Below are positions 22,640 through 60,476 of a stretch of DNA of 64,000 nucleotides, piece by piece (the first letter of the stretch is position 1; each line of letters opens with the position of its first letter). The translations under genes and the position numbers were made by a program. Under the pieces are notes generated by a model, which saw nothing but the letters and a program-made list of their open reading frames with translations, had not been told where the DNA came from and made no database searches. This DNA comes from Lathyrus oleraceus. Lineage: Eukaryota; Streptophyta; Magnoliopsida; Fabales; Fabaceae. The stretch lies in NCBI RefSeq assembly GCF_024323335.1, contig NC_066585.1, forward strand, positions 83,812,614 through 83,876,613. The letters run 5' to 3'.

Positions 22640-25440
22640 TGTCATACCCCAAAATTTGTCCTACTTCTTTTACATTTTCATCTGACTTTTGACCCTAAAT
22701 TCATCGGCATATTCATTCATGTACAATTGCATTTCTTATATAAACATCATTAGTTCAGAGGTTGGTGTTCATGGCACAAGTGCTGGATAAGTTCCTCTTC
22801 ATGGTGTTCTTAAGAAGCAAGCCTATGGTATTTTGGTGTTGCATTTAATCGTATCATTGGATCTGATTATGAACTGCAAATGTGATTGGTCAATCTTTTA
22901 TGGACTTGGTCATTTTGTATGGATTCAAGAAAAGGTTTTGCAATTCAGAGTCGAGTAGAAGAAGTCAAGATTCATTCCTTCAAATTCATGTTTCATTCAA
23001 GTACAAGTTCAAATATTCAACGTTCCATTACAAAAAAGTTCAAAACCAAACTACACTATTTTACATCATTTAACCCACAATTGACTCTTGATCAACTGTT
23101 GAATTTTTAGTCAAATGGTTGACCAAAGTCAATTGACCATCCTAAACAATACTCGTTTCATCCCTTCGTGAGTCCTCCATATTTAAGCTACCCAAATCTT
23201 CAAGGTTCCAAAATACCACGTCAAAGCGTTGTTCTCACCATGTGCCATACCTACGAAACCATACACAACGCAAAATGAGTCACAAAAATCACTGCATAGC
23301 TTACATCTGCAAGCCACTACATCTGAAGAATCAAAAAACTAAGTTTCAAGTTAGTAACCGGTTACCAAGAATCAGGTAACCGGTTACACATGTTCTTTTC
23401 CAGCAGCATTGCAGAACCATTTCAAAACATACCAAACCAGTTCACATAGCAACAATAATACATAACCGCAAAAGAAAATGCAGTAACACATCCTTTACAC
23501 TTTGAACCAAGCATTTCTAACACACTAACATCCATCAAAATATTGAACTATACTAACTCATTCCAATCCTAAGACCAAGCCAAGCTAAAAATTCCATAAC
23601 AATCCCTGCATTTAACACTTCAATAATAGTTCCAACTAACAACTTAATAACTCATTAACACCATTAACATCATAACCAACTTTCTCATGAGAACACTTAA
23701 CATTAATTGTTGTCGAAACTTTTAACCACCATTTCCAGGAAAAGTGACCGAAACGGTTGGAAGATCCATCTATATAAACTCATCACTCTCTTAAATCTAA
23801 GGAGGTTCATTTATCAACCAAAGGCTCTAATCATTTTCTGCAGAAAACCACTCATTGAAAATTCAGCTTTCATTCTTTCAATTCATCTTCTCCAATTCCT
23901 CTTCCTACATTAAAGCTCTATCACCATTGGAGCAAGCTTCACCTTGAAGTTAGTCACAATTGAGGTAAACCTCCTACATTTTACACTACTCTTACACTCC
24001 CATAATCAACATCAACAAATTATCGATTGAAATTAGCATACCTCTATTTTTCTTCATCTTCATCACCTTCAAATTTCAACAAATTCCAAGACAATTCTCC
24101 GTCTTGCATGTCGGTGAATTTTTATTCCTTCTTGTTTGCTGAATTTTTGTTACCACAATGTAGATTTTGTATTGGATAATCAAAACCCCGAGGTTTGGTG
24201 GCTTGATTGTTCTCCACCTGCATTTAATTTCAGTTTTCATGGTTAGGGTTCATAATTTTCTTGCTTCAATTTAAAGAATTGGTTAATCTTTGGAAAGAAT
24301 TGATGAGAGATTAGGAAAGAGGAGGTTGAGAGGAGTAGATTGATGGTAATATTTAGTAATTCCGACCAACTCCGCCGCCTCCGACACGGTGGAGCAAAGC
24401 TCTGATGGTGGTGTTTTTGACATCTTCATGAACATGATGTGTAGAGATGAAGAATAACTTTGTTGAATTTTCCCCCTTCCCTTGGCCATTTTCGGTTGGG
24501 CTTAGAGCCATTAAGCCCACTGTTTTTCTCTTCATACCCCTATTTTGCTTAGGCTACCTTTTGTTGAACCCAACAATAACACCTTGTATTTGAGTCTTAT
24601 CTGTTAGGCCCAAAGCCTCTGTTTCTAGGCTACATACCCTCTGGTGTATAAACCCATGCGGATTTAATTGCTTTTCTTTTATTTCTTATTTTTCATCAAT
24701 TATTTTGTCAATTGTTCTTATGCTTTTAATTCATGAACATGCACATTCTAACTCATGTAAATTCATAGTAAATTCATGTATCATGGTTAATTAGAATATT
24801 TTCTCTTTTGGAAGTTAGGTTCCAACATGCTTAATTTCAATGCCATGTTAAATCATAAAAAAATACACATTAAAAATGGTTAGTTTAATTAGGATGGATT
24901 TCTACTTTAGATTTTAATTGAATTTAGTATAGAGTTTAGCTCTCTATTTTTAATTAGAAATCAAATTCTTTACTCTTGATTACATATATGAATTATGATT
25001 GTGATTTTGCCACTTAAATGATTCCTATGTGCTCATTGGTTTAATTTTGCATGGTGTATGATTATCCCCCATTTGAAACAAATGTATCCCACTCTCATGA
25101 AAGTGTAATAATTTTATCGCTTTTCTCACTCGTTCATTAATGTAGAAATAATCAAAAGCAAACTAAAAAGAACCTTTTTCAAAAGGGAAAAAATAAACTT
25201 GATCTAACGTCAAGTGTTTTTCCAAATCAAACTTAATTGAATGCAACGCGAGTACTTGATCCAACGTCAAGTACCTCTTTCATTTAATTCACACAATTGT
25301 CACATTCAATATCAAACACTTTATCTTACGTCAAGTCATTTTCAAAACATATTTTACAATAAACCGGATGAAAAAGGATGGTGGTGTACATACTTGTACA
25401 CACCATTTCTCAAGTACTTGGGTTGTCGGCCGTACTTAGG
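22640..25440. mobile_element. 2.8-kb non-coding LTR-like insert in Tat gag
   Basis: It interrupts gag precisely between EIGDI and NNENL. It begins TGTCATACCCCAAAATTTG, resembling the start of the Ogre-type solo LTR at 41094 (TGTAACACCTCAAAATTTG), so it is probably a solo LTR or truncated LTR of a related large element. It has no coding potential and contains a perfect palindrome pair (23354-23387) and repeated GATC(C/T)AACGTCAAGT motifs at about 25200-25275. A clear target-site duplication and the exact right border could not be found. Confidence 0.55.
23354..23387. repeat. Pair of perfect 12-bp palindromes GTAACCGGTTAC
   Basis: GTAACCGGTTAC occurs twice, separated by the 10-nt linker CAAGAATCAG, giving a centre-to-centre distance of 22 bp. 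Each has a central CpG. The arrangement parallels the palindrome pairs in the copia and chromovirus LTRs of this window. Confidence 0.95.
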
Positions 25441-25442
25441 TT

Positions 25443-29170: not shown

Positions 29171-29299
29171 AATAGGGAATACAAATGTGTCAAATAAAAT
29201 TTGATCGTGTATTTCATGGTAGAAAATAGATTGTTGTGAAAGTTTGACTACGTGAACATTAGGCACATCCCTCGACTCAAAAATTAAGAGGCTAATGAT

Positions 29300-30706: not shown

Positions 30707-30806
30707 ACCTATACTCCAAGAAATTAAGATATTAACAGAATAAACGCATGTGCAACATAGAAGCCAAAATGGTAAGTCAAAAGGCCAAAATGGCTAAGGT
30801 TGTTCA

Positions 30807-33337: not shown

Positions 33338-33338
33338 T

Positions 33339-34073
33339 TGTTAGCTGTAATTTCGACGCTAAAAAAGATATAAGAAGTCAAGTATAAAACTTAAGGAAAT
33401 AATTGAAGAAATCCAAGTTGACTTCGACGGGAGTTAGGCAAAGCCTTTTCGACTGGAATTTGGCAAGGAAATTGCTATATTGTCAAAATAGCTAGGATTT
33501 AGAAGTTTTTGAAATGGTTCGAAGATGAGTTCGACGAAGATAATTCAAAATGAGGTTAATAACCATATTTTGGTCTTATTTGTTCCTTCAAAGGACGTGT
33601 GGAGGCGAAACACATGCAAGCAAGAACGTGTCATTTTATGAGAAAAAATTGTTTGTTACCGTTACTGTCGAAGTAGTATAAATATGAGTCTTAGCATTAA
33701 GATTCAGGGTGTTCAATATTGTGTCAAACTCAAAACCACTTGATTTATATAAGTGTTATTGAGAAAAAGAGTTTTATGAGAATATGTATGTATGAGACAC
33801 CATATTTTCATTCAATATCAATTTATTTACATTAAAGTCATTTTTATTCCATTTACATTCCTGTCGAAATTATGTTCTTTCTTCATATTTTCTATAAATC
33901 TTCTTTTCATTACTTTTAATTGCAACATTATCGTCGAAGAACTTACTAGTAAAAAAAATCTTAAACAAAAACTATACACATATGTCCTAGGATCAATCTA
34001 GTTGATCCTGTAAGTAACCAAAGTATCAATTTTGGAAGACTAGCGCATGTTTACCAAAATCCAAGGTAAACAC
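33339..34073 (+). repeat. 3' LTR of Tat element A
   Basis: 735 bp, TGTTAGCTG...GTAAACA. Distinct from the B LTRs over most of its length but sharing the terminal part (ATGTCCTAGGATCAATCTAG, GTTGATCCTG, TTTACCAAAATCCA). It contains a TATA-like AGTATAAATATGAG near 33676. No matching 5' LTR of this subtype is seen in the window. Confidence 0.75.
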
Positions 34074-41093: not shown

Positions 41094-44000
41094 TGTAACA
41101 CCTCAAAATTTGCCCTCCTCTCTTGGGACTAGCTTAACATGTGGCATATCATTTTTAGGTCATTAGTCATTGCATATTGCATACCATGTGGTTACATTGT
41201 GCAAGTCATCCTCATAAGTCTTGATCAGAAGATGAAGAGGTCATGATGCAAGCTAGGGTTTCATTGGACTGGATCACTAATCATCTGAGGATATGGTGGT
41301 TCAACTTAGGGTTTCATGGTTTATCAAGGAGATTGATCTTCATCTTGGTGGAAATGATACATCATCATCATCATGGTTTTGATATCATCCAAGAGATTCA
41401 GAAGATTGATCAGATACCTTGGGATTAGGGTTTTGACCACTGGTCAACCCTAATCAGTTGCATTGGGCCAATCAGGGCATAGCAAGGAGATGGGGTCTAT
41501 AATGGATATGGGGATCATCATGTGATTATATTGAGCATATGAAGGCTAGGGTTTCATCATTGAGCCATTTCATCAGAGGATTGAGGCTCAGATTGATCAG
41601 TGCACAACTAAATTCATCTATCAGTTGAAAAAGTCAACTGTGGTCAACTGTGCTTGATTTTATGGATTTGGAGGTGGGAGAGAGTTGGATACACTTCATT
41701 CATGTTGAAACAAGTTTCACTTGACATGTCAAAGCTCAAGAATGAAGAAAATAAAGTCAGACAAAAAGTTGCCAAAAATAGAAAGTGACTTGTAATGGAA
41801 GTTTCCAAAAATGGAAAATTTTTCACCACAAAATTACATGTCCAAAAAAGCTTCAAATGAAAATTTGTTCAACATGAAAGTTGTAGATCTTGCTCTCACC
41901 TTTCCAAAAAGTCCAAGAACTTGAAATTCCCATGCATGGTTGGCAAGTTATGGTCCATTCATTTTTCAAAAATGCCTATAATCAAAGTGGCCTAACTTTC
42001 ACATGGAATGTCCAATTTGAGTGATCTTTTTGTGAGCAAACCCCATTTCACATGTACTTTCATGGTGTGTGATCAAAATTCATCAAAAATGGTCAAGGCA
42101 AAAAGTCAATTTTCAAGTGGATTTATGTGTATTTTTGGTGTGAGATAGTGAATTTGAGCAATACTTGGAATTTGGACATGAAACCAATGCCAACACACTC
42201 CAAATGCAAAATGTGATTTGCTCCAACTGTCATGTGCTGTCATAGTGCATAATTTGGCAAGGTCATTTTTGGACTTTCATTGAAAATGCAATTATGCTAA
42301 TCACTTGATTTTTGGTAATTGAGATTAGGAAGTGGATTAGCATTGGTATATATTGTTAAGCATAACAGAAAATGCTAATTACAATCACATTCTCCAAAGA
42401 TCTGTAACTGAATTTCACCAAAACCTCTCAAAATTCTCAAAAATCTTCATCACTTTTTTTCATCAATCTTCACCAAATCTTCATCATTCTTGCTGATTCT
42501 TCGTGGATTCATCTTCCACAAGGTTCATTGAGGAGCTGTTTTGCTGAATCATTGCCTAAAACTCCAAGAATTGGAACTGTCACAAGTGAGCACAACAATG
42601 GCAAATGGATGGATCTTGCACATGAAGCATCTTTGAGCTAGGACCTGCACTCCAATCATCTTCCTGTACATCAATCCTCATCTGTTTCACAAAATTACGC
42701 CTGGAAACTCACGAATCGAGACCTGCAATCTCCACAAGGTGTTTTTTCGAATCTCATCATCGCATGAATTATTATATGCCTTTTGTAGGTCTTTGAACGT
42801 AGAATGCAATGATGCTTTTAGTTTGTGAATTGACTGAGTATTGAATGTGTAATCGTGAATTAAAGTTTGATGCGCATTTCGTTTTTTGCTCGATCCCGTT
42901 TGTATGTTAGGAATTAGGTTAAGCCAGTTAGGTATTCGTCATGTACATGTTCATACGGTTCTAATGACTATAAGCTTGTGGCATTTGGTTGAAATTTGGT
43001 GTTCTTGACTTTCTGAAATTTCTGGACTTGTTCGTGAGGAAGAACAAGATGAACACGCGCTCAGATCTTGAATTTCCATGGCCTTGTTTCAAATTGTGTT
43101 TGGCGCGTGAATTGGCCAATGAGCGCTTGCCAACGCTTCTAAATGGAGCGACGTCGTTTTGGCCAATTGCTTTAGTATTACGAGAATGCCACTGATTCAA
43201 TAATTATTTATATTATTTCATTTCCTTTTCTTTTTTTTTATTTCATTTTGTTACATGATCTTTAGAAATTCATAGAGACTTCATTTTTCATCCAAATTGA
43301 GTGAGATTTTTTGCATGATATTCCGGAGGATGTGTAGAATTTAATCATGATTTTTGTGGAATTTTTGCATGTGTAGAAAATTAAAATGCCTAGGGTTGGA
43401 TTGTATGTGTCACATTTGTGTATGTCTTGCCATATCCTTCATGAAATGTTGATGCTTTCAGAGAAATGAGGGAAATTTTTTGTGCTTGTTCTGGACATGT
43501 TGATGGTGATTTTCATGTAGAGTTTGTAATTTTTGGATACTTGGTTGAAGAGATATGAATTTTTTATTAGAGGTGTGACAATTTGTGTCACACCAAGCAT
43601 TGTGAACTTCATGATTTTATTTAAAATACCTAGGAATGTTGAATTGAGTTGAAATTTTGCATGAATGAACATATGAATGTTGAGATCACATGAGATTTTT
43701 TCTGGAATTTTTGATGACATTTTCTAATTGATTGTGATTTTCTCTTCTGTTGGCTCATTTTGTGACATTGTGTGACACATGGTTGTATTTTGTTTGTGAA
43801 ATTCTCATAGTGTATTGGATGAGTGTAACATTTGACATGTGGATTGTAGACACATTATAGGTCATTATGATTTTGATCCCATTCATTTATCTTGTTGTGA
43901 CACTGTTTTATGATTTATGGAAGTTGATGCTTGTGTTGATGCCTTGTGTTGGCTTGTTTGAAATTGTCTGAACTTCTTGATTTTCACTGGCCTACTTCCT

Positions 44001-45659: not shown

Positions 45660-46645
45660 TACGTAGGCATAGGACGCGATGTCCTAGCGAGCCCTCTTCC
45701 TCTTCTCCCCCACCTGTGTTGTCTTCGGTGTGTGTGTATGATGTTTGTTTAGCAACCTTTTCTTTCTTTTAGAGCGTGGATCCCGTCGAGTACGACGGAC
45801 GTGAGGGGTGCTAATACCTTCCCCTTGCGTAACCGACTCCCTTACCCTTTCTCTTTGGTCGCGTGACCTTGCTTTTTCCAGGTTTACTCTGAGCGTTTCC
45901 TTTCCCTCTTTGGGATAAATAACGCACGGTGGCGGCTCTGTGTTGTTTTTGTTTCCGCCCGCCGGTTGTTTTTCGCGGATGCGACAATAATTCGTATGCA
46001 TTGATATGTAACACCCCAATTAAAATAAGCTAATTATTTAATTTAAATTAATATTTTATTTATTAATTTAATTGAATAATTAGAAGTTTGGATTAATAAT
46101 ATTATTATTTTGGAATAATAATTATTGGGATTATTATTATTGGATTATTATTTTTATTATTGGAATAAAGTGGAAATCAGTAAAAAGGTCCCATTTAGTA
46201 AAAAGGTTATTGTTTTCACGTGAAAAGGAAAAAGAGACAGATCGTGGAAAAGGGCAAAAAGAGAACCAGAGAACAAGGGATTGAAGGGAGGAAAAGCTTG
46301 AAGCTGCAGAATTTGCCGGATTAACTCAGGTAAGGGGGGTTTATCGTTGATTAACGGGTATTGTATGATAATATGTCATGGGTAGTGATAGACCTTTAAT
46401 TTACCTTTGAATTGGATGATTATGATGAATTTGTGGAAATAATTGATGAACGAAATTGGGTGATAATCGAAAGAAATTCGTAAGAATTGTATGTGATAAT
46501 GTTATGAGTTGTGAAATCGAATTGGGGAATGGTTCGGGTTAGATGATACGAGTGATTTCTGTGTAAATTTGGACTGTGGAAGGTGAGATCGAATAGAACT
46601 CGTAGCAGAAAAGCCATTGCAGATCTGAGAATGCTGGTTTCTGGT

Positions 46646-46875
46646 CATACGCGTATGGCACTAGGCAATACGCGTATGGGATGGCTGGTACGCGTATGGC
46701 GCTAGGCAATACGCGTATGGATGAGGAAGATGAAATTTTGAACGTAAAATGGTCTCTGGTGGTACGCGTATGGGGAAGTGATACGCGTAGCATACGCGTA
46801 TGGAATTGGGCAATACGCGTATGGCTTGGTCAGGATTTAGGCAATACGCGTATGGCATGGGCAATACGCGTATGG
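46646..46875. repeat. Array of ten TACGCGTA palindromes, helically phased (5' LTR)
   Basis: TACGCGTA starts at 46648, 46669, 46689, 46710, 46763, 46782, 46793, 46814, 46845 and 46865, mostly within CAATACGCGTATGG. Spacings are 21, 20, 21, 53, 19, 11, 21, 31 and 20 bp, all near whole multiples of 10.5. ACGCGT also fits the CGCG-box consensus of plant CAMTA factors. Confidence 0.93.
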
Positions 46876-47227
46876 GCAGGATTGTGATTTCCTGTGCTGT
46901 TGTTGTGCAGTTTTTGACTGGTTAGGCTGAGTAGTGAGACTTAGCTGAGGTATGATGTAATAGGGATCATTTCCCGTTGTTTTGAGTAGTATAGGTATTA
47001 GTAGAGTGTGCTAATACTGTGTTTGATTTTATGGCATGTTGTGATATGCTTTTGTGATAAATGTATTGACAATATGTTGAGGATAGGTGTTGATATGCAG
47101 GATGCTGTGAATGTATCAGTTATGTATGCATTTGTGAATAGACTGTTTGTGGCTTAGAGTGTGAGCATATGTCTATTTTGAGTTGTTGTTGTTGTTGTAT
47201 TGCTAGGTAATTAGCATGCATGATTAG

Positions 47228-47559
47228 CCTGTGGGGCTGTAGCTAATTCCCATGGTGAGGAATTAGTGAGTGAATTCTTGTGGAATTGTTGCTGATGTTG
47301 GCATACTAGATGAGTAGTGTGCATAGTCTAGCCTCTGGGGCTGTAGCTAATTCCCATGGTGAGGAATTAGTGAGTGAGTCATTAGATCTCAATGAGTGGG
47401 ACTAGTGAGCTCAGTAGCCGTATCCGGAGGGATCGGTGAGCTTGGACTATATGTTCAAGAAGAGTCGGTACCGCATTTCATGGAGTCTCATTACATAATG
47501 AATGCATGGCATAGCCTGTGGGGCTGTAGCTAATTCCCATTGTGAGGAATTAGTGAGTA
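47228..47559 (+). repeat. Three dispersed copies of a hairpin-forming 45-bp repeat
   Basis: GGGGCTGTAGCTAATTCC, then CATGGTGA (CATTGTGA in the third copy), then GGAATTAGTGAG. CTAATTCC and GGAATTAG are exact complements (8-bp stem, 8-nt loop). Copies start at about 47228, 47331 and 47513 and recur in the 3' LTR. Confidence 0.85.
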
Positions 47560-48128
47560 AATCGTTGTGTTGTGTTGTTGGTGTTGAGCATGTTTTGAGA
47601 TTTTACCTATGCTATTTGTTATTGTTGAGTATGAGGTTGCGTTGATACTGCTGTTATGGAGTGGGTAGTCTGGTTAGGGTGATTTGATGCGTTATTTACT
47701 TAACATTACATGTTGTTGTATAATGCTTGTTATATTGATTGAGGAACTCACCCTTACAACTATTTTTCAGGTAACGAGCAGTGAGTTGAGTAGAAGATAA
47801 TGTTGGAGTCTAGTGTAGTCTCCTAGTGGGTCATGCTCTGGTAGATGTAACATCGGGATGGGATGTTTGAATATTTTATTGATTGGTTGTGAATCATTTT
47901 GCATGTAATATGTTACATGTTTGGAATAATTGAATTGATTTCTATCCGCTGCGTATTATGCAGATACTTTATATTTTGAATTGGATAAATGAGCATGACA
48001 GGACACTTTGATGATTAGTGTGTGATGTTTGTGTGACACCCTTCGGGGCATAATTACTCTGATTAATATGTTATTATTTTTTTTATTATTTAAATAATTT
48101 GGGGTATTTTAGAAGGGTGTTACATTAG

Positions 48129-48140: not shown

Positions 48141-48249
48141 ATAGTCGGTCGTGTCGAGTCGTAGTTATTCTGTTTCCCCTGTACGGGATAGGTGTTGTGT
48201 AACCCTATCAGTACTTACTATTTTAGCTTGTTGGGTTTTCAGAATAGAG

Positions 48250-51200
48250 ATGGCTGGAAGAGGTAGAGATGATGCTGCGATTGCTGAGGCTCTGGGTATG
48301 CTAGCTGGAGTACTTGGAGGAAATCCGAATGTGGTGGGAATGGGAGCTGCTCGTCAGTTGAGTGAGTTCCAAAAGAACAATCCTCCAATGTTCAAGGGAG
48401 CATACGATCCAGATGGTGCTCAGAAGTGGTTGAAGGAGATTGAGAGAATCTTCAGAGTAACTGAGTGTGCTGATAATCAGAAGGTCAGGTTCGGTACGCA
48501 TATGCTGTCAGAAGAAGCTGACGATTGGTGGGTTGCTACCCGCACTGAGTTGGAAACTGCTGGAGATGCTGAGATTTCTTGGGCTGTGTTCAGAGAGAGA
48601 TTTCTGAGGAAGTACTTTCCCGAGGATGTCAGAGGAAAGAAAGAAATTGAGTTCTTGGAATTGAAGCAGGGTAACAGGTCCGTTACGGAGTATGCTGCCA
48701 AGTTCACAGAGCTGTCGAAGTATTACACTCCCTATGCTGAGGCTGCTGGGGAATTTTCCAAGTGTGTGAAGTTTGAGAACGGGTTGCGTCCCGAGATCAA
48801 GCAAGCGATTAGATATCAGAGGATTAGAGTGTTTTCTGATCTGGTTGACTGTTGCAGGATTTTTGAACAGGATTCCAAGGCCAGAGCTGAGAGCTATCAG
48901 CAGAGGGTTGATAGGAAAGGCAAGAATCAGATTGATCGTGGAAAACCGTATCCAGCTGGCAAAGGTTTTCAGAGGCAGAGTGGAATGAAAAGGCCTAGCG
49001 GGGGAGACTCTAGTGCTCCTGTTAAGTGTTACCGATGTGGTCGGGCTGGACATCGTGTTCATGAGTGTACCAGTGCTGAGATGAAGTGTTTCAAGTGTGG
49101 AAAAGGTGGTCATTTGGCTGCAGAGTGCCGGTTGAAGACTGTGACTTGTTTCAACTGTGGAGAGTTGGGTCATATCAGTCCACAGTGTCCAAAGCCAAAG
49201 AAAGAGAATCAGTCAGGAGGCAAGGTTTTTGCTTTATCGGGTTCTGAGACTTCTGCAGATGATCGTTTGATCCGAGGTACGTGTTATATTAATGGCTTTC
49301 CTCTTGTAGCTATTATTGACACAGGTGCGACTCATTCTTTTATATCGTTGGATTGTGCTGTGAAACTTAAGTTAGAGATATCTGAGATGCGTGGTAGTAT
49401 GGTGATTGATACTCCTGCGAAGGGTTCAGTGACTACTACTTCTGTTTGTTTAAGTTGCCCCTTGAGTATTTTTGGTAGAGCCTTTGGGATAGATCTTGTG
49501 TGTCTTCCATTAGTGCAGATTGACGTTATTCTGGGTATGAACTGGTTGGTGTTCAACCGAGTTTCTATCAACTGTTTTGATAAGACTGTGATATTTCCTG
49601 AGATTGAAGAAGGAAAGAGTTTGTTTCTATCAGCCAGGCAGGTGAATGAGGAAGTGGCAGATGGGGCAGAGTTGTTTATGCTGTTAGCGACTTTGGAAGC
49701 TAAAGATAAACTGGTGATTGGCGATCTAGCTGTAGTGTGTGATTTTCCTGAGGTGTTTCCGGAAGAAGTGAATGAATTGCCACCAGAACGTGAAGTTGAG
49801 TTCTCGATTGATTTAGTACCTGGTACTAGACCAATATCGATGGCTCCGTACCGTATGTCTGCTGTTGAGTTAGCTGAATTGAAGAGTCAATTGGAAGATC
49901 TGTTGGATAAGAAATTTATTCGTCCGAGTGTGTCACCGTGGGGTGCACCAGTGTTGTTGGTTAAGAAGAAAGAAGGTACTATGAGGTTGTGTGTGGACTA
50001 CAGGCAATTGAATAAAGTGACGATCAAGAATCGGTATCCTTTACCGAGGATTGATGATTTGATGGATCAATTGGTTGGTGCTAGTGTGTTCAGCAAGATA
50101 GACTTGAGATCTGGGTATCATCAGATACGTGTGAAAACTGAAGATATTCAGAAGACTGCTTTCAGAACGAGGTATGGACATTATGAGTATTCTGTAATGC
50201 CTTTTGGTGTGACTAATGCGCCGGGAGTATTCATGGAGTACATGAATAGAATTTTCCATCCGTATCTAGATCAGTTCGTTGTGGTATTTATTGATGACAT
50301 TTTGGTGTATTCGAAATCTGAAGAAGAGCATGCTGAGCATTTGAGAGTGGTTTTAGGAGTGCTGCGAGAAAAGCAGTTATTTGCTAAACTCTCAAAGTGT
50401 GAATTTTGGTTAGAAGAGGTTAGTTTTCTTGGTCATGTGATTTCAAGAGGTGGTGTTGCTGTTGATCCTTCTAAGATAGAAGCGGTATCTAAGTGGGAAG
50501 CTCCGAAGTCAGTTTCTGAGATAAGAAGTTTTCTTGGACTTGCAGGTTACTATAGGAAGTTTATTGAGGGATTCTCTAAGTTGGCATTACCGTTGACAAT
50601 GTTGACCAGAAAGGGGCAAGCGTTTGTTTGGGACTCAAAATGTGAAGAAGGTTTCCAAGAGTTAAAGAGAAGGTTGACTACTGCTCCTATTCTGATATTA
50701 CCGAGTTCGTCGGAACCATTTGAGGTTTTCTGTGATGCTTCATTGTTGGGTTTAGGTGGTGTGTTGATGCAGAATAAGCAGGTTATAGCTTATGCTTCGA
50801 GACAACTGAGGGTTCATGAGAGGAACTATCCGACACATGATTTAGAGTTGGCAGCTGTGGTATTTGTTCTGAAGTTATGGAGGCATTATTTGTACGGGTC
50901 AAGATTTGAAGTTTTCAGTGACCATAAGAGTTTAAAGTATTTGTTCGATCAGAAAGAGCTGAATATGAGACAGAGGAGATGGTTAGAATTTCTGAAGGAT
51001 TATGATTTTGGTTTGAATTACCATCCGGGTAAAGCAAACGTTGTGGCTGACGCATTGAGTCGGAAATCATTGCATATGTCTATGCTAATGACTAAAGAGT
51101 TGGATTTAATTGAGCAGTTTAGAGATTTGAGTTTGGTGTGTGAGAGTACTCACAATAGTGTTAAATTGGGAATGTTGAAATTAACAAGTGGTATTCTGAA

Positions 51201-52620
51201 CGAGATCAGAGAGGGTCAGAAATCCGATATGCTTTTGGTTGATAAGTTGACGTTAGTGAATCAAGGTCAAGGTGGTGAATTCAGAGTTGATGAGAATGGT
51301 GTTTTGAGATTTGGCGATCGGGTGTGTATTCCGAATGTTATTGAGCTTAAGAAGAGTATTCTTGAGGAAGGACATCGTAGTGGCTTAAGTATTCATCCTG
51401 GAGCTACGAAGATGTATCATGATTTGAAAAGGTTATTTTGGTGGCCGGGAATGAAAAGAGAAATTGCGAGTTTTGTTTATTCCTGTTTGACTTGTCAGAA
51501 GTCAAAGATTGAGCATCAGAAGCCGTCTGGGCTAATGCAACCGTTGGCTATTCCGGAGTGGAAGTGGGATAGTATCAGTATGGATTTTGTTGCTGGTTTG
51601 CCGAGGACAAATAAGAATTTTGAGGCTATTTGGGTGATTGTTGATAGATTGACGAAGTCGGCTCATTTCATTCCGATCAGAATGGATTATCCGTTAGAGA
51701 GGTTGGCTGAGTTGTATATTGAGAAGATTGTAAGTTTGCATGGTATTCCGTCGAGTATTGTTTCGAACAGAGATCCTAGATTTACATCAAAGTTTTGGGA
51801 TGGGTTGCAGAGAGCTTTGGGAACTAAGCTGAGATTGAGTTCTGCATATCACCCGCAGACTGATGGTCAGACTGAGAGGACGATTCAGTCATTAGAAGAT
51901 CTTTTGAGAGCTTGTGTTTTGGAAAAAGGAGGTGCTTGGGATTGTTATTTGCCTTTGATTGAATTTACCTACAACAATAGTTTTCATTCGAGCATTGGTA
52001 TGGCACCGTTTGAAGCTTTGTATGGTAGGAGATGTCGGACACCTTTGTGTTGGTATGAGTCCGGTGAGAGTGCTGTGGTTGGACCGGAGATTGTTCAACA
52101 AACTACGGAAAAGATTAAGATGATTCAGGAGAAGATGAGAATTGCTCAGAGTCGTCAGAAGAGTTATCATGATAAGAGGAGGAAGTCACTTGAATTCCAA
52201 GAGGGAGATCACGTGTTTCTTCGTGTTACTCCGATAACTGGTGTTGGTCGAGCTTTGAAGTCGAAGAAGTTGACACCTCGATTTATTGGTCCTTATCAGA
52301 TTTTGGAGAGGATAGGAGAGGTAGCCTATCGTATCGCCTTACCACCGTCGCTTGCGAATTTACATGATGTTTTTCATGTGTCTCAGTTGAGGAGATACAT
52401 TCATGATCCGTCGCATGTAGTCCAAATAGATGATGTACAGGTGAGAGATAACCTGACTGTTGAAACATCACCTATGAGGATCGAGGATCGAGAGTTGAAG
52501 CAGTTGCGGGGTAAAGAGATTGCCTTGGTGAAGGTAGCTTGGGGAGGACCAGCAGGCGGCAATGTGACTTGGGAACTTGAGAGTCAGATGAAGGAGTCTT
52601 ATCCGGAGTTGTTCGCTTGA
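48250..52620 (+). CDS. Chromovirus Gag-Pol polyprotein, ORF intact, integrase Asp substituted
   Basis: One uninterrupted frame of 1456 codons from [10 protein letters not shown]; an in-frame Met at 48151 lies almost at the PBS, so 48250 is preferred. Domains: capsid about 70-170; three CCHC knuckles starting at Cys260, Cys280 and Cys300 (most gypsy Gags have one or two); protease with Asp357 in [14 protein letters not shown] with FIDD 680-683; RNase H with Asp829 in [10 protein letters not shown]; integrase HHCC from His1042 to Cys1082; core Asp1112 and Glu1209; C-terminal chromodomain-like tail ([29 protein letters not shown]), which points to Tekay/Del. The middle catalytic residue of D,D35E is Asn1173 (SNRDPRF, codon 51766-51768); the family has Asp here. 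So the ORF is intact but strand transfer is predicted to be impaired. Confidence 0.95.
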
Positions 52621-52649
52621 GGTATGTTTTCGAGGACGAAAACTCTTTT

Positions 52650-52662
52650 AGTGGGGGAGAGT
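52650..52662 (+). other. Chromovirus polypurine tract
   Basis: AGTGGGGGAGAGT immediately before the 3' LTR start TGTAACACC. Confidence 0.9.
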
Positions 52663-54778
52663 TGTAACACCCCAATTAAAATAAGCTAATTATTTAATTT
52701 AAATTAATATTTTATTTATTAATTTAATTGAATAATTAGAAGTTTGGATTAATAATATTATTATTTTGGAATAATAATTATTGGGATTATTATTATTGGA
52801 TTATTATTTTTATTATTGGAATAAAGTGGAAATCAGTAAAAAGGTCCCATTTAGTAAAAAGGTTATTGTTTTCACGTGAAAAGGAAAAAGAGACAGATCG
52901 TGGAAAAGGGCAAAAAGAGAACCAGAGAACAAGGGATTGAAGGGAGGAAAAGCTTGAAGCTGCAGAATTTGCCGGATTAACTCAGGTAAGGGGGTTTATC
53001 GTTGATTAACGGGTATTGTATGATAATATGTCATGGGTAGTGATAGACCTTTAATTTACCTTTGAATTGGATGATTATGATGAATTTGTGGAAATAATTG
53101 ATGAACGAAATTGGGTGATAATCGAAAGAAATTCGTAAGAATTGTATGTGATAATGTTATGAGTTGTGAAATCGAATTGGGGAATGGTTCGGGTTAGATG
53201 ATACGAGTGATTTCTGTGTAAATTTGGACTGTGGAAGGTGAGATCGAATAGAACTCGTAGCAGAAAAGCCATTGCAGATCTGAGAATGCTGGTTTCTGGT
53301 CATACGCGTATGGCACTAGGCAATACGCGTATGGGATGGCTGGTACGCGTATGGCGCTAGGCAATACGCGTATGGATGAGGAAGATGAAATTTTGAACGT
53401 AAAATGGTCTCTGGTGGTACGCGTATGGGGAAGTGATACGCGTAGCATACGCGTATGGAATTGGGCAATACGCGTATGGCTTGGTCAGGATTTAGGCAAT
53501 ACGCGTATGGCATGGGCAATACGCGTATGGGCAGGATTGTGATTTCCTGTGCTGTTGTTGTGCAGTTTTTGACTGGTTAGGCTGAGTAGTGAGACTTAGC
53601 TGAGGTATGATGTAATAGGGATCATTTCCCGTTGTTTTGAGTAGTATAGGTATTAGTAGAGTGTGCTAATACTGTGTTTGATTTTATGGCATGTTGTGAT
53701 ATGCTTTTGTGATAAATGTATTGACAATATGTTGAGGATAGGTGTTGATATGCAGGATGCTGTGAATGTATCAGTTATGTATGCATTTGTGAATAGACTG
53801 TTTGTGGCTTAGAGTGTGAGCATATGTCTATTTTGAGTTGTTGTTGTTGTTGTATTGCTAGGTAATTAGCATGCATGATTAGCCTGTGGGGCTGTAGCTA
53901 ATTCCCATGGTGAGGAATTAGTGAGTGAATTCTTGTGGAATTGTTGCTGATGTTGGCATACTAGATGAGTAGTGTGCATAGTCTAGCCTCTGGGGCTGTA
54001 GCTAATTCCCATGGTGAGGAATTAGTGAGTGAGTCATTAGATCTCAATGAGTGGGACTAGTGAGCTCAGTAGCCGTATCCGGAGGGATCGGTGAGCTTGG
54101 ACTATATGTTCAAGAAGAGTCGGTACCGCATTTCATGGAGTCTCATTACATAATGAATGCATGGCATAGCCTGTGGGGCTGTAGCTAATTCCCATTGTGA
54201 GGAATTAGTGAGTAAATCGTTGTGTTGTGTTGTTGGTGTTGAGCATGTTTTGAGATTTTACCTATGCTATTTGTTATTGTTGAGTATGAGGTTGCGTTGA
54301 TACTGCTGTTATGGAGTGGGTAGTCTGGTTAGGGTGATTTGATGCGTTATTTACTTAACATTACATGTTGTTGTATAATGCTTGTTATATTGATTGAGGA
54401 ACTCACCCTTACAACTATTTTTCAGGTAACGAGCAGTGAGTTGAGTAGAAGATAATGTTGGAGTCTAGTGTAGTCTCCTAGTGGGTCATGCTCTGGTAGA
54501 TGTAACATCGGGATGGGATGTTTGAATATTTTATTGATTGGTTGTGAATCATTTTGCATGTAATATGTTACATGTTTGGAATAATTGAATTGATTTCTAC
54601 CCGCTGCGTATTATGCAGATACTTTATATTTTGAATTGGATAAATGAGCATGACAGGACACTTTGATGATTAGTGTGTGATGTTTGTGTGACACCCTTCG
54701 GGGCATAATTACTCTGATTAATATGTTATTATTTTTTTTATTATTTAAATAATTTGGGGTATTTTAGAAGGGTGTTAC
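52663..54778 (+). repeat. Chromovirus 3' LTR
   Basis: Nearly identical to 46007-48124; TACGCGTA array at 53301-53530, hairpin repeats at about 53882, 53986 and 54169. It ends GGTGTTAC, lacking the last A, directly before GATACATAGG of the host copia LTR. Confidence 0.95.
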
Positions 54779-55166
54779 GATACATAGGACATTTCAACTA
54801 ATCATGGATCGATGCAAGGCACGTATGGATCGATCCATAGAGCATTTTGCCTGTCCATGTATCGATACATAACTCGTATGCATCGATGCATACTGAACAA
54901 AAAAGTTTTGTGATTTGCAACATGCTGTATGTATCGATGCATAGGCTTATGTGTTGATGCATACTGACACAAAATGGATTTTATGAGTTCTTTTAAGAGA
55001 TGTATCAATGTAGGTCTTTATGTACAGTCATGCAACAATAGAATGGGATAAAAACACAGTAAAAACACAAATGTATCATGTAAGGTAATGCACAGCCAAT
55101 ATTTGGATGATGATCACACAATTTGCTATCATTCAAAATTTATTCAAAGTAAAGAATTTTCTCACA
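54779..55166 (-). repeat. Copia left LTR, final part
   Basis: Continues the copia LTR after the chromovirus; matches 60089-60476, including the ATCGAT palindrome array, and ends CTCACA. Confidence 0.92.
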
Positions 55167-55879
55167 AACTCCCCCTTTTTGATGATGGCAAATTTTTGGC
55201 AAGATGTGTGATACTCCCCTTGAGTTTGTGCATGTCTGCACTCCCCCTGAGTTTGTGCATGTCTGTCAACATCTGCATTTCTCCCCCTTTGTCAACATCA
55301 AAAAGAAGAAAAAAACAGGTTTATCAAGGCAACATGTAGCAGAACACAGCAAAATTGATAGATAAACTAACAATCACACAGAATGAAGCTTACAAAGTAA
55401 AGAATCACTCACAAAGAATGACAAATAAGGGCAATAACAGCAGAAGTAAACAGAAGGTTATAAGCATTTAAGTAGTATGAACGAGTTTAAGAATTACATA
55501 AGCTAACCATATATTGTGCAACAAAAAAAACTTAAGCAACATGAAAAAAATGCATTTAATCCAAATAGCAGTCAGTATGTGTCGATGCATATGGCCATGA
55601 ATCGATCCATAGCATGCAAGTTTGTTTTTAAAGGGTCTATGTATCGATACAAACGACGGATGGATCGATACATCCTGAACCAGTTTTGAGAAATTTGAAA
55701 TGCATAAGATATGAATCGATGCATACATGTTTGGATCGATACATACTGATGCCAAACCAGATTTTAATGAATTTTTGTGCAGTATGGATTTGCATTATGC
55801 CCAGAAGTATGATTCACAAATCAGAATTTTTAATGTTCAAACAGTATAAGCAAAAAAACTTTTGTTCTAACATACACAA
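55167..55879 (-). other. Copia PPT and 3' untranslated region with a second palindrome array
   Basis: On the minus strand the PPT AAAAAGGGGGAGT precedes the LTR, and further CCCCCT-rich blocks (about 55216-55290, plus reading) look like duplicated PPT-flanking sequence. At 55580-55740 six ATCGAT- or GTCGAT-centred palindromes recur at spacings of 20, 42, 21, 51 and 20 bp. No coding sequence. Confidence 0.75.
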
Positions 55880-57200
55880 TCATATAATTCTAAATGAGAT
55901 ATAGATAGGAGTGATATTACCTCTGTTGGTGTAACCTTGTGAGGAATAAGTATAATCTAAAACAAATCTCATCAAACTAGGTGAGGCATAATAAAAATAA
56001 GAAGAAACATGCTTATCCTTATCCAGATTTCCGTTGGTAGGCATAGGGGTGTCAATTGATTTTGAGTCATTCATTCCAAAGCGCTTGAGTAGTTCTCTGC
56101 AGTATTTTGTTTGACATACTGCTGTACCCTCATCAAGTTGCTTTATCTGCATTCCTAGGAAGTAATTCAGCTCCCCCATGAGACTCATCTCAAATTCACC
56201 CTGTATAACCTTAGAGAATTCTTCGACCAAGTGTATGTTAGTTGAACCAAAAATTATATCGTCTACATAAACTTGAACTAAAAGGATGTGCTTTCCTTTG
56301 TGCTTAATAAAGAGAGTATTATCCACTTTACCTCTTGAATATCCAGGATCAATTAGAAATTTGCTAAGCCTTTCATACCAAACTCGAGGGGCTTGTTTAA
56401 GACCATACAAAGCTCGTTTTAATTTGTAAACATGATCTGGATTTTCAGCATTCTCAAAACCAGGAGGTTGTGAAACATATACCTCTTCATTTATGACACC
56501 ATTAAGAAAAGCACTCTTTACGTCCATTTGGTAAAGCTTAAAGTCGTTGGAACACGCATAGGCAAGCAAGAGACGTATAGCTTCAAGGCGAGCAACTGGA
56601 GCATAAGTTTCCTCATAGTTTATGCCCTCCTCTTGGTTATACCCTTGTGCTACTAAACGTGCCTTGTTCCTAGTAATCACTCCGTTTTCATCAAGCTTAT
56701 TTCTAAAAACCCACTTAGTGCCTATGATATGATGATCTCGCGGACGAGGGACAAGTTCCCAAACGTCATTTCTTTTAAATTGATTAAGCTCTTCTTGCAT
56801 GGCCATTAGCCAAAATTCATCAATCAAGGCCTCTTTGGCATTTTTAGGTTCTACTTGTGAAACAAACGCGAAGTGAGAACAAAAATTACTTATCTTAGAA
56901 CGGGTCATTACTCCCTTTGAAATGTCTCCCAAGATGTTGTCAATGGGATGGTCTTTTGAGGATTTCCAAGCTGTTGGAAGATCATTCACTGCAGCTGTCT
57001 TTTCTTCCTCATTCTCTTCATGACTAGTATCTTCCTCCTTCTCATGGGCAGCTGTTTTGGACTGATCAGTTTCCTCAACAGCTTCCTTGAGTATGTCTTC
57101 TGTAGATACCCCTGCGTCATCAAAAGAAATACCTTTTCCGACATTTTTCGGATAAGACTCATCAAAAGAAACATGAACAGATTCTTCAACAGTAAGTAAA
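55880..57200 (-). pseudogene. Copia reverse transcriptase, RNase H deleted
   Basis: After the integrase deletion the minus strand reads a linker ([20 protein letters not shown]) in one frame, then an open frame of 369 codons (55880-56989): [87 protein letters not shown], intact [10 protein letters not shown], and [16 protein letters not shown]. It then breaks off after [15 protein letters not shown]; RNase H and any env-like ORF are missing. RT motifs are intact, but no complete pol product can be made. Confidence 0.88.
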
Positions 57201-57519
57201 TGCTTATTATACTATTTACTCTTACTCCCTTAAACACAATGTTCTGTTCAGCATGTTCAATTATGCAGCAAGTTTTTGTGAAAGAAACTTTATAACCCTT
57301 GTCACGCAATTGACTTATGCTTAACAAGTTGTGTTTAAGCCCCTCTACTAAATGGACATCAGAAATAGTAGTGGTAGAGGGATTACCTACACTACCTTTG
57401 CCGAGTATAGCTCCTTTGTTATTGTCTCCATAAGTAACATATCCCTTCTTCTTTGCTTTGAAGTCTATGAAAAGCGATATGTCACCGGTCATGTGCCTTG
57501 AGCAGCCGCTGTCATGAAA
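57200..57519 (-). pseudogene. Copia protease, with integrase deletion downstream
   Basis: Reads FHDSGCSRHMTGDISLFIDF, GYVTYGDNNKGAILGKGSVG and HLVEGLKHNLLSISQLRDKG. It is separated from gag by one TGA (57520-57522), at the position that usually codes Trp before the protease active site DSG. After IVFKGVRVN the sequence jumps to the integrase-RT linker in another frame, so the whole integrase is deleted near 57195-57230. Confidence 0.8.
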
Positions 57520-58755
57520 TCATCTTCTATCTACGGAAGCAAGGCACTCATCCTTTTTATCATTGATTTTCTTCTTGTGGTAGGACAAATTTTTGGTGTG
57601 AGCCGTAAGGCACAGATTTGCAGTTTCATCACTATCACTTGAACTTTGTGTGCTTGATGAATCACTATCACTTTCCCATGCAATGTAAGCTCTTCTTTGT
57701 TTGCTGTACCCTTTTGGTGAAGCTTTTCTTTGATCCTTATACTTCATAGGGCAGTCCGTTTTATAATGTCCAGATTTACCACAATTAAAACAAGATCCTC
57801 TTCCTCTACTCTTCTTGTTCTCTTCTTGTTTCGAATCTGTAGATTGTCTTCGAAACTTCATGAGATTTTTATCGGAATGCTTGACTTTGTTCTTTCGAAT
57901 GAATCTATTATATTTCCTTACAAAAAGTCTCATTTCCTCATCATCCAAATCTTTGTCACTACTAGAATCATTGTCACTTTGCTCTTTTCGTGAGGACTTA
58001 GAGCTAGAGGCCACAAGAGCTATTGGCTTCTTCTCTCCCTCTTTGTCTCTTTTCTTCTCCTTTTCCTTCTTACTTTTGTTCTCATATTTTTCAAGACTTT
58101 CCAATGCTTGCTGATGTTCTTCCAGCTTTCCAAACAAGGTTGTAATCGTAAGTCTCGTTAGATCGTTGGCTTCCTTAATTGCTGTTACTTTAGGTTGCCA
58201 TTCCCTGCTAAGACACCTGAGAATTTTATTAGTAGCAATTTCATTGGAAATAGGTTTTCCAAACGCATTCAATCGGTTAGTTAGATGAGTGAATCTCTTT
58301 TGCATGTCGGAGATAGATTCTCCTTGTTTCATGCGAAAGAGCTCAAACTCTTGATTGAGTGTGTTAATCCGGGACTGTTTTACTTCAGTAGTACCCTCAT
58401 GGGCAACTTCTAAAGCATCCCACATTTCTTTAGCTGTCGTGCAATGGGATACTCGATAATACTCATCAACACCAAGTGCTGAAATTAGCATGTTTCGAGC
58501 TCTCCAATCACACGACCACTTTTTCTCATCTTTCTCATTCCAATCATCTTCTGGTTTAGGTACTATGGCGCCAGCCGCATTTGTCATGGTAATTTGAAAC
58601 GGACCATTTTCAATGGCAGCCCATACTAGCCTATCCACAGAATTTATATGAACTCGCATGCAGTCTTTCCAGTAGCCGTAATTTTCACCGTTGAAAATAG
58701 GCGCTCTATTATACGCCCCCTTTGGTTCAGAATCCATACTGTTACAGGCAGCCAC
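57520..58755 (-). CDS. Copia Gag protein (SIRE/Maximus-like), intact
   Basis: 411 codons. Starts MAACNSMDSEPK (a second in-frame Met follows six codons later, also plausible). Capsid region typical of copia UBN2 type: APIFNGENYGYWKDCMRVHI, ARNMLISALGVDEYYRV, EMWDALEVAHEGTTEVKQSR, FELFRMKQGESISDMQKRFT, NKILRCLSREWQPKVTAI. A Lys/Glu-rich and then acidic Ser-rich linker follows, and one CCHC knuckle CFNCGKSGHYKTDC. The start lies about 20 bases inside the PBS. Gag is the only complete protein left, as is common in non-autonomous elements that depend on partners for pol. Confidence 0.9.
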   Translation of the reverse strand: MAACNSMDSEPKGAYNRAPIFNGENYGYWKDCMRVHINSVDRLVWAAIENGPFQITMTNAAGAIVPKPEDDWNEKDEKKWSCDWRARNMLISALGVDEYYRVSHCTTAKEMWDALEVAHEGTTEVKQSRINTLNQEFELFRMKQGESISDMQKRFTHLTNRLNAFGKPISNEIATNKILRCLSREWQPKVTAIKEANDLTRLTITTLFGKLEEHQQALESLEKYENKSKKEKEKKRDKEGEKKPIALVASSSKSSRKEQSDNDSSSDKDLDDEEMRLFVRKYNRFIRKNKVKHSDKNLMKFRRQSTDSKQEENKKSRGRGSCFNCGKSGHYKTDCPMKYKDQRKASPKGYSKQRRAYIAWESDSDSSSTQSSSDSDETANLCLTAHTKNLSYHKKKINDKKDECLASVDRR

Positions 58756-58774
58756 AGAGCACCAGCGAACCGGC

Positions 58775-58786
58775 GCTCTGATACCA
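58775..58786 (-). promoter_or_regulatory. Copia primer-binding site
   Basis: Minus strand TGGTATCAGAGC, initiator Met tRNA type, two bases from the LTR edge at 58789. Confidence 0.92.
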
Positions 58787-58788
58787 CT

Positions 58789-60476
58789 TGTTAGACGGTG
58801 TGGCTAGTGATCGAGAGGGGGGGTGAATAGATCACCTCTTTAAAATTAAACGGATTTAATGTTTTATCAGAGTTTTCAAAGTTGGCGGAAAATTTCAGTC
58901 CCGAATCGACTTCCGTCTATTCTGAACCGCTACTAGAAAACCGGACACACGAGTTTAATGCTGGATTTGAATGAGAATGACAGAAACTATCAACACCAGA
59001 ATTTTAGCTAATTGAATGCACTTATCATTAAAGTCTATTTCCAATGAATAAAACCTAGCTAACAATTTTGTCAAACAGTTGGTGTGTATGTGATCCATGA
59101 TAAACAGCAGTGAAGTTTAGTTAAAGAGGTTTTCTTGCCACTGCTGTCTTGCAAAAGGCACAATCACAACACACTAACTGAAATTGCGAAAATTGTTTGA
59201 AACGTAAAGAGGAGTAAGGTAAGAATACAATACGCAGAGATTTGGTAAGGAAGTTCCCCACGTCGTCCTCGCGTGTGGGTACGTCTCCCTCTCAATTTCA
59301 AATGAAATTGAGAACTTTGATTATCAATTATTGCCGAATTCGTTGATACAAGGTTATGATACAAAGACAGAATTCTAAATTCCAAGAACTTCTTCTTGTA
59401 TGAAACCTCCACTTGATCTGAGCACAATCAAGAATTTCCTGCACGAAATTGCAAACAATTCACCGGTTCCACGACCTGCTTGCGAAATCCGCCGATCTCC
59501 AAACGCAACGCTGCGGCTGAATCTGTTCTGCAAACGTGACTAACAAACCCGCAAGAACACTCCAGTTCTTGAAGGACAAACCAGTAGGTTTTTCCTCGAA
59601 ACCCCCTTCAATCTTCAACTCAGCTAGATCCTCGATCGTTCCACTGAAAACCCTCAGCTAGATCCTTGATCGTACCACTGAACGTTATCTCGTTGATCCT
59701 TTAATCCAAAGAACAAGAATGATTATGTGTTGATATTCTTGAAGAAAAGTGATTGAGAAGATGAAGAAGATGAAGTCTCTTTCAGGTTTCTATCTGCTCT
59801 CAAACAACTGCTGCTACACTGCTTTGATCTTGTGTACAATTGTTTTTCCCTCTAAGAATTCGTATTTTTCACTGCTGTCACAATATCTCTTATATATGCT
59901 GAAAAACAGAAACTGTTAGAGCACAAAACAGACTTATGCATTGATACATGAGAGTATGCATCGATGCATACTGTAAGATAAGTGAGTTTTTGGTGAATTG
60001 AATTAAGCATGGATCGATGCATAATTCGTATGTATTGATGCATATGACATTTCAACTAACATGCATCGATGCATAATTCGTATGCATTGATACATAGGAC
60101 ATTTCAACTAATCATGGATCGATGCAAGGCACGTATGGATCGATCCATAGAGCATTTTTCCTGTCCATGTATCGATACATGACTCGTATGCATCGATGCA
60201 TACTGAACAAAAAAGTTTTGTGATTTGCAACATGCTGTATGTATCGATGCATAGGCTTATGTGTTGATGCATACTGACACAAAATGGATTTTATGAGTTC
60301 TTTTAAGAGATGTATCAATGTAGGTCTTTATGTACAGTCATGCAACAATAGAATGGGATAAAAACACAGTAAAAACACAAATGTATCATGTAAGGTAATG
60401 CACAGCCAATATTTGGATGATGATCACACAATTTGCTATCATTCAAAATTTATTCAAAGTAAAGAATTTTCTCACA
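58789..60476 (-). repeat. Copia 5' LTR (right side in window)
   Basis: 1688 bp, uninterrupted copy, flanked on the right by the ACTTT duplication. It contains the palindrome array at 59937-60319 and serves as the empty-site reference for both insertions in the left LTR. Confidence 0.95.
59937..60319. repeat. Array of 13 ATCGAT-centred palindromes, helically phased
   Basis: Imperfect to perfect palindromes such as ATGCATCGATGCAT, TGTATCGATACA and TATGGATCGATCCATA. Centres near 59942, 59962, 60015, 60036, 60067, 60088, 60120, 60141, 60173, 60194, 60245, 60265 and 60316. Spacings are 20, 53, 21, 31, 21, 32, 21, 32, 21, 51, 20 and 51 bp: pairs about 21 bp apart, with gaps of about three or five helical turns. 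Pairs share a (C)GTATG-type linker, so dimer-unit duplication is likely. Confidence 0.9.

What the first reader, a model, noticed from the sequence alone, without database searches (positions are those of the whole stretch)
23354..60319. Convergent architecture: paired CpG-centred palindromes in three unrelated LTR families
Three LTR-type sequences here share a design, not a sequence: perfect palindromes with a central CG (GTAACCGGTTAC, TACGCGTA, ATCGAT-type), arranged as pairs 20-22 bp apart with short linkers. Two belong to different retrotransposon superfamilies. I know no named feature type for this. One idea (inference): the host has several dimeric, methylation-sensitive DNA-binding proteins, and LTRs repeatedly evolve phased arrays for them, either to recruit transcription or to hold nucleosomes. 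Alternatively such arrays arise by a common replication or repair mechanism at hairpin-forming sites.
Basis: partly seen in the sequence, partly recalled or inferred. Interest (0 to 1): 0.9.

Follow-up and report, generated by a model that had tools for sequence, protein, structure and literature searches.

The report
Phased palindrome arrays in retrotransposon LTRs
Jumping genes of this plant genome carry control regions with short mirror-symmetric DNA words repeated at whole turns of the double helix, and related copies carry different words in the same slot, which points to swappable docking sites for proteins.

Summary
In the host genome (3.795 Gb; species not named) paired palindromes occur at least 1,194 (GTAACCGGTTAC), 35,242 (ATACGCGTAT), 2,028 (ATGNATCGATNCAT) and 955 (GAGTCGACTC, a fourth type) times; the reversed-pattern control is 0 each time.

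(1) Centre-to-centre distances sit on multiples of about 10.5 bp (20-22, 31-32, 42, 51-53, 74), so boxes lie on one face of the helix; 193 of 200 listed genome pairs fall within 1.5 bp of a multiple. (2) In one Ty3/gypsy family the same LTR slot holds either an ACGCGT array (window, L019) or an AACCGGTT array (L009, L015): unrelated sequence between related flanks. AACCGGTT arrays also occur beside copia genes (L003, L025).

Palindromic repeated motifs are known in Sirevirus LTRs (PMC2829016), and the ATCGAT array fits them. Gypsy arrays, slot exchange and helical phasing are extensions I did not find in ten paper searches. Best reading: cis-regulatory arrays for dimeric host DNA-binding proteins, moved by recombination. 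'CpG-centred' is wrong for TACGCGTA. No binding protein is known.

The parts
23354..23387 (.). Pair of GTAACCGGTTAC palindromes, centres 22 bp apart; host element not identified
   Evidence: same pair type at least 1194 times in the genome, control 0; no partner repeat; TATA-like site 389 bp downstream on +
46007..48123 (+). 5' LTR of Ty3/gypsy element (TGTAACACCCC...GGTGTTAC), module A type
   Evidence: 99.9% identical to 52663-54778; joining the flanks of the element gives the sequence of the neighbouring copia LTR, GATA doubled
46646..46875 (.). ACGCGT array, 10 boxes, distances 21,20,21,53,19,11,21,31,20
48145..52620 (+). gag-pol ORF of the gypsy element, 1491 aa
   Evidence: Pfam gag, CCHC, protease, RVT_1, RNase H, integrase H2C2, SH3_Tf2-1; no chromodomain hit in the last 92 aa
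52663..54778 (+). 3' LTR of the gypsy element
53301..53530 (.). ACGCGT array in the 3' LTR
58789..60477 (-). 5' LTR of Sirevirus-like Ty1/copia element on the minus strand
   Evidence: repeats at 39790-41094 (97.9%) and 54779-55167 (99.5%); junction sequences; PBS-like TGGTATCAGAGC next to it (label recalled)
59942..60245 (-). ATCGAT array in the copia LTR, 12 boxes at up to 2 mismatches, distances 20,53,21,31,21,32,21,32,21,51,20; TATATAA 46 bp beyond the last box in the sense direction
54779..55167 (-). Part of the copia 3' LTR with ATCGAT array 54808-54933; the rest of this LTR is 39791-41093 and 45987-46006
55583..55737 (-). Second ATCGAT array, between the coding region and the 3' LTR (linker), distances 20,42,21,51,20
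55169..55290 (-). Repeated polypurine-tract-like GGGGGAG copies before the 3' LTR
   Evidence: read by eye; tandem repeat 55213-55265
55880..58803 (-). copia coding region in three separate ORFs (gag, Pol_BBD, RVT_2)
40952..41094 (-). ATCGAT array in the displaced piece of the copia 3' LTR

Best explanation
The arrays are cis-regulatory binding arrays of LTR retrotransposons. Shown: several unrelated palindromes, each with one or two CpGs at the middle, are repeated at whole helical turns; in one gypsy family the boxes are conserved while the DNA between them diverges; and that family carries two alternative arrays in the same LTR slot, with flanks whose kinship disagrees with the array, which means recombination. 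Inferred: each palindrome is the site of a dimeric DNA-binding protein; boxes on one face of the helix let dimers contact each other (pairs two turns apart, pairs repeated at five or seven turns); the proteins are encoded by the host, because the same box serves gypsy and copia elements; binding promotes LTR transcription or resists silencing; and swapping arrays lets an element change the factor it uses.
For: Phasing: 10 arrays, one per element family, box type and location, give 56 distances, 55 within 1.5 bp of a multiple of 10.5; Rayleigh R 0.888 at 10.45 bp, reached by 0 of 300 random sets over a period scan and by 0 of 2000 jittered sets at 10.5 bp; with each distance counted once per array, 34 of 35. 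Thirteen loci fetched later: 75 distances, R 0.786, best period 10.4. Listed genome-wide pairs: 50 of 50, 50 of 50, 48 of 50 and 45 of 50 within 1.5 bp of a multiple, where 27-33% are expected (computed). Conservation: AACCGGTT boxes 1 of 84, 2 of 84 and 1 of 84 mismatches against 46 of 213, 37 of 212 and 22 of 212 in spacers; ACGCGT boxes 8 of 89 against 50 of 205 (one-sided Fisher p 8e-7 to 4e-3). Slot exchange: module A against B 33-44% identical in the 100-column steps 500-900, flanks 60-96% and mostly above 70% (columns 0-1300); L019 (module A) is closer to L015 (module B) than to the window in both flanks, 1000 of 1000 bootstraps each, and in 0 of 1000 in the module. Genome-wide, B box plus the conserved flank at 2422 places, A box plus the same flank at 1074; 4 of 100 listed B rows (apparently two elements) carry an A-type stretch after the B array. 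Shared use: AACCGGTT arrays in gypsy L009 and L015 and beside copia genes in L003 and L025. Promoter: TATATAA just after the window's copia array.
Against: No protein is identified and no binding, expression or methylation data exist here. In the gypsy family the TATA-like sites that my pattern found lie about 450 bp before the array in four of five LTRs, and the window copy has none there, so 'upstream enhancer' does not fit. TATA-like sites 60-160 bp from an array occur in 11 of 34 arrays, but several are copies of one family and some are antisense. GTCGAC arrays are less clean: 25, 26, 29, 33, 67 and 93 bp also occur. The 13 later loci were picked from the pair lists, so at least one distance in each was selected beforehand, and 7 distances outside 8-110 bp were dropped. 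The 10 arrays are not all unrelated (two from the window's copia element; L003 and L025 are one family), and distances inside one array are not independent, because units duplicate. Compensating symmetric changes at the free ATCGAT position are weak: 14 of 29 against 9.4 expected. Motif columns were defined by exact boxes, which favours their conservation somewhat. The arrays also fold as strong RNA hairpins.
Confidence: 0.62

Rival explanations
1. RNA-level function: transcribed arrays fold into hairpins (box pairs as stems) that serve RNA dimerisation or packaging, or that the host cuts into small RNAs, as proposed for maize Sirevirus palindromes.
For: Six array pieces fold with z-scores -4.0 to -7.5. 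Small RNAs map to maize Sirevirus palindromes (passages of PMC5311732, and PMC10760457).
Against: Any palindrome array folds well. Hairpins do not require distances of 31-32, 42, 51-53 or 74 bp on a 10.5-bp comb. Compensating changes are weak.
Confidence: 0.17
2. Nucleosome or chromatin design: phased CpG boxes set the rotation of DNA on a nucleosome, or present methylated CpGs on one face to readers.
For: The 10.5-bp phase; A/T steps look lower near the box phase in three of four classes.
Against: That signal is confounded by decayed boxes and by position; after masking, in three classes, it is inconsistent (23/60, 36/59, 17/61; 14/26, 10/22, 4/22; 44/113, 55/105, 50/98). It does not explain 10-14 bp of conserved palindrome.
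Confidence: 0.1
3. A TE-encoded factor binds the boxes, as VANC proteins bind motif arrays in VANDAL elements to undo silencing.
For: Motif arrays in noncoding TE DNA, tandem gain and loss, motif turnover between related copies (passages of PMC5735166) look alike.
Against: The gypsy ORF has only gag-pol domains in Pfam, and the same AACCGGTT box serves gypsy and copia elements.
Confidence: 0.07
4. Neutral by-product: tandem duplication of 21-bp units with later spacer decay, without selection on boxes or phase.
For: Some arrays are plain 21-bp tandems (L037).
Against: Boxes are conserved while spacers diverge; odd multiples (31.5, 52.5, 73.5) are not multiples of 21.
Confidence: 0.04

Closest known systems
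Palindromic repeated motifs (RM boxes) of Sirevirus LTRs (Bousios et al. 2010, PMC2829016; section 9 and passages seen)
   Same: Many copies of a dyad-symmetric box in the first half of the LTR just before a TATA box, extra copies in the linker, CpG-rich, flanks unrelated between elements; Tnd-1 has an ATCGAT-core box
   Different: There the motif is called Sirevirus-specific (against classic copia elements), usually with a CGG-CCG core, and the parts I saw give no helical phasing and no exchange of motif within a family. Here a gypsy family has such arrays, with two alternative boxes in one slot
Maize copia palindrome CACCGGACNNNGTCCGGTG, also frequent in Helitrons (PMC10760457, passages)
   Same: One palindrome shared by unrelated TE superfamilies; [quoted passage not shown]
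   Different: Other sequence and host; the passages treat secondary structure and small RNAs, not helical spacing
Tnt1 BII boxes (PMC3316501, passages)
   Same: LTR boxes known to bind host (defence-induced) factors
   Different: Another copia element; the passages do not describe palindromes or phased arrays
VANC target motif arrays in VANDAL elements (PMC5735166, passages)
   Same: Dense short motifs in noncoding TE DNA that turn over fast by tandem repeats
   Different: Motif YAGTATTAY is not a palindrome; DNA transposons; bound by a TE-encoded protein; mostly specific to one family

Membership tests
Sirevirus with RM boxes (window copia element) | At least eight copies of a palindromic box in the element | tested here: met
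   12 boxes at up to 2 mismatches in the 5' LTR, 59942-60245; 8 with an exact ATCGAT core
Sirevirus with RM boxes (window copia element) | Boxes begin 200-400 bp into the LTR, TATA box shortly after | tested here: met
   exact ATCGAT cores from 232 to 515, TATATAA at 584 of the sense sequence
Sirevirus with RM boxes (window copia element) | Multiple polypurine tracts before the 3' LTR | tested here: met
   repeated GGGGGAG-type copies at 55169-55290, read by eye only
Sirevirus with RM boxes (window copia element) | Additional boxes in the linker before an envelope-like gene | tested here: inconclusive
   linker boxes present (55583-55737); no envelope-like gene among the ORFs scanned
Sirevirus with RM boxes (window copia element) | CGG-CCG core | tested here: not met
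   core is ATCGAT, as in Tnd-1, the one exception in the paper
Sirevirus with RM boxes (window copia element) | Reverse transcriptase placed in the Sirevirus clade | not tested
   only Pfam copia domains
Sirevirus RM as a Sirevirus-only feature | Absent from other LTR elements | tested here: not met
   gypsy family with ACGCGT or AACCGGTT arrays
VANC-type anti-silencing system | Element encodes the protein that binds its motifs | tested here: inconclusive
   the gypsy ORF shows gag-pol domains only and boxes are shared across superfamilies, which speaks against it; other ORFs and other elements were not exhaustively scanned
LTR enhancer array bound by host factors (Tnt1-like) | Demonstrated protein binding and enhancer activity | not testable with these tools
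   sequence evidence only

The most novel reading that the evidence does not exclude
The host has a set of dimeric DNA-binding proteins with different palindromic sites but one shared geometry of cooperation (two, three, five and seven helical turns). LTR elements of both superfamilies plug into this set with interchangeable array cassettes, so that a family changes its host factor by one recombination event; the cassettes work independently of their place relative to the start site.
Probability: 0.3. Interest if true: 0.85.

Novelty: new variant of a known kind. Interest (0 to 1): 0.66.

Why it matters
Palindromic LTR motifs have been described since 2010, and the 2010 paper could not name a common binding factor. 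A 10.5-bp comb over four unrelated boxes says that the constraint acts on double-stranded DNA and on one face of the helix, which favours protein binding over RNA structure and gives a clean bench test (half-turn insertions). Natural elements that differ mainly in the array are ready-made comparisons. Arrays by the thousand in one genome also offer enough sites to find the proteins by DAP-seq or pull-down.

Tried and rejected
Viral contigs were scanned for three pair patterns: 0, 0 and 1 hit. The hit (L005, an IMG/VR contig) looks like a short repeat inside a reading frame (by eye); I take it as coincidence.

L009 first looked like a transposon with terminal inverted arrays; BLAST showed two gypsy copies in opposite orientation.

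Compensating base changes as proof of palindrome selection: weak. Nucleosome-type A/T phasing: confounded and then inconclusive. TATA-box distance as a general rule: suggestive only.

Papers. Ten searches were answered. GTAACCGGTTAC: one paper, by its title on protein-peptide evolution, listing only. Four other box words: 123 papers, 20 listed, none of those titles on plant LTRs. Retrotransposon, palindrome and 'helical turn' together: 2 papers, not opened. 'Helical phasing' with palindrome and TE terms: 225 papers hold three of the four, 8 listed, none of these 8 with the phrase. Pea retrotransposon papers (186 papers, 20 listed) were not opened. Passages of PMC10578108 name another palindrome in a maize enod40 insertion. 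Bousios et al. 2016 (Genome Research) is not held; I know it only through other papers, so helical spacing could be reported there.

Not obtained: the total number of the conserved gypsy flank, the GTTAACCGGTTAAC pair count, ACGCGT distances of 41-70 bp, relatives of the 23354 sequence.
Full report
What the window is. Size and number suggest pea or a close relative; that is inference. It holds nested retrotransposons. A Ty3/gypsy element spans 46007-54778, with LTRs 99.9% identical and one intact gag-pol ORF. It sits inside the 3' LTR of a Sirevirus-like copia element on the minus strand, whose 5' LTR is 58789-60477; joining the flanks gives the sequence of that 5' LTR, with GATA duplicated.

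The observation. All three palindrome sets are present at the stated places. Like-core pairs of 10-bp palindromes within 60 bp number 21 in the window against 0.2 in shuffles, and 38 in 200 kb of random stretches against 0.5. Arrays of the four box types turned up in 6 of the 20 random stretches (L007, L009, L015, L019, L023, L025), including a fourth box, GAGTCGACTC. Genome-wide pair counts are 1,194 for GTAACCGGTTAC (gap 5-15), 35,242 for ATACGCGTAT, 2,028 for ATGNATCGATNCAT and 955 for GAGTCGACTC (gap 1-30 each). The built-in control, the same pattern read backwards (also palindromic, same base content), gave 0 four times. One correction: the dyad of TACGCGTA is GpC, with a CpG on each side.

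Helical phasing. In 22 arrays of the window and the first loci the 118 consecutive distances fall at 11, 19-22, 31-32, 42, 50-54, 63, 74, 85 and 104 bp (arrays were cut where neighbours lay more than 120 bp apart, and distances under 8 bp were not counted; homologous copies are included). For 10 arrays, one per element family, box type and location, 55 of 56 distances lie within 1.5 bp of a multiple of 10.5, and 34 of 35 if each distance is counted once per array; no random or jittered set reached the observed value. These 10 are not all unrelated: two come from the window's copia element, and L003 and L025 are one family. Thirteen loci taken later from the pair lists gave the same comb, weaker because of the GTCGAC arrays (R 0.786 over 75 distances; 7 distances outside 8-110 bp dropped; at least one distance per locus was selected beforehand). 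In the genome-wide lists (first 50 places each, all on C1) the GTAACCGGTTAC pairs are 21 or 22 apart (17 and 33; 17-27 allowed), ATACGCGTAT pairs 20, 21, 31 or 32 (8, 31, 7, 4; 11-40 allowed), ATCGAT pairs 21, 30-33, 42 or 44 (26, 17, 5, 2; 15-44 allowed), and GTCGAC pairs 21, 29, 31 or 33 (36, 5, 4, 5; 11-40 allowed). Many of these places are copies of one another, so they are not 200 independent facts.

Selection on the boxes. Between three LTRs with the AACCGGTT array, boxes differ at 1 of 84, 2 of 84 and 1 of 84 sites and spacers at 46 of 213, 37 of 212 and 22 of 212; between the two ACGCGT arrays 8 of 89 and 50 of 205.

Slot exchange. L009, L015 and L019 belong to the window's gypsy family (94-97% identical proteins). 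In the LTR alignment a stretch of roughly 500 columns holds either the ACGCGT array (window, L019) or the AACCGGTT array (L015 and two copies in L009). Inside it the two kinds are 33-44% identical, hardly more than forced alignment of unrelated DNA; outside, A against B, 60-96%, mostly above 70%. L019 is nearer to L015 than to the window in both flanks (0.096 against 0.196 and 0.091 against 0.184; 1000 of 1000 bootstraps each), yet it carries the window's module. Four of 100 listed rows, apparently two elements on C1, show the AACCGGTT array followed by a stretch typical of the other module. Both forms are numerous: 2,422 and 1,074 places next to the same conserved flank, exact pattern only. 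So the array behaves as a cassette that recombination moves within the family.

Shared boxes across superfamilies. AACCGGTT arrays with pairs two turns apart, repeated at about seven turns, also lie beside copia genes. L003 has a copia reverse transcriptase, an array, and then a stretch with a second array that is 94% identical to L025, where a copia gag gene follows; that this shared stretch is the LTR is inferred. The window's copia element and L007 use ATCGAT instead. Box type therefore does not follow element lineage.

How it may work. Comb spacing concerns double-stranded DNA; palindromes suggest dimers; conservation suggests function; sharing across superfamilies suggests host-encoded proteins. 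In the window's copia LTR the array ends 46 bp before TATATAA, much as described for Sireviruses. In the gypsy family TATA-like sites lie about 450 bp before the array in four of five LTRs (none found in the window copy), and a conserved CAG/GTAAGG lies between, so there the array may lie in a leader intron; that is inference. An orientation- and place-tolerant enhancer or anti-silencing array is the reading I find most likely. RNA hairpins are the main rival: the arrays fold well, and maize Sirevirus palindromes collect small RNAs, but hairpins do not need the comb.

Known or new. Palindromic repeated motifs of Sirevirus LTRs were described by Bousios et al. 2010, including an ATCGAT-core box in Tnd-1, and a maize palindrome is shared by copia and Helitron elements. 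Hence a new variant of a known kind. Ten paper searches (listed in Tried and rejected, with what I opened) showed me no report of helical phasing, of gypsy arrays of this type or of slot exchange; the 2016 paper on maize palindromes is not held.

Noticed in passing
window 41094-45986 and 46007-54778: Two different insertions hit the ATCGAT array of the same copia LTR about 16 bp apart (apparent direct repeats ATAAT and GATA); the gypsy one lies within a decayed box. Arrays may be insertion-prone, open DNA.
   Followed up: partly
window 46327-46335 and the same place in L009, L015, L019: Conserved CAG/GTAAGG, a good plant splice donor by recall, ahead of the array of the gypsy LTR: possible leader intron.
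   Followed up: no
L038 400-650: Mixed boxes that join half of the GTCGAC box to half of the ATCGAT box (GAGTCGATACAT), as if half-sites were read separately (heterodimers?).
   Followed up: no
L016 9716-9833: TAATCGATTA boxes 23 bp apart, possibly C-to-T derivatives of TAACCGGTTA or a fifth box type.
   Followed up: no
window 28349-30713 and 34072-36372: Two degenerate gypsy-like copies in tandem, 65-66% identical in the aligned pieces.
   Followed up: no
window 13711-13797: Perfect TA repeat of 43.5 copies next to a TG repeat.
   Followed up: no
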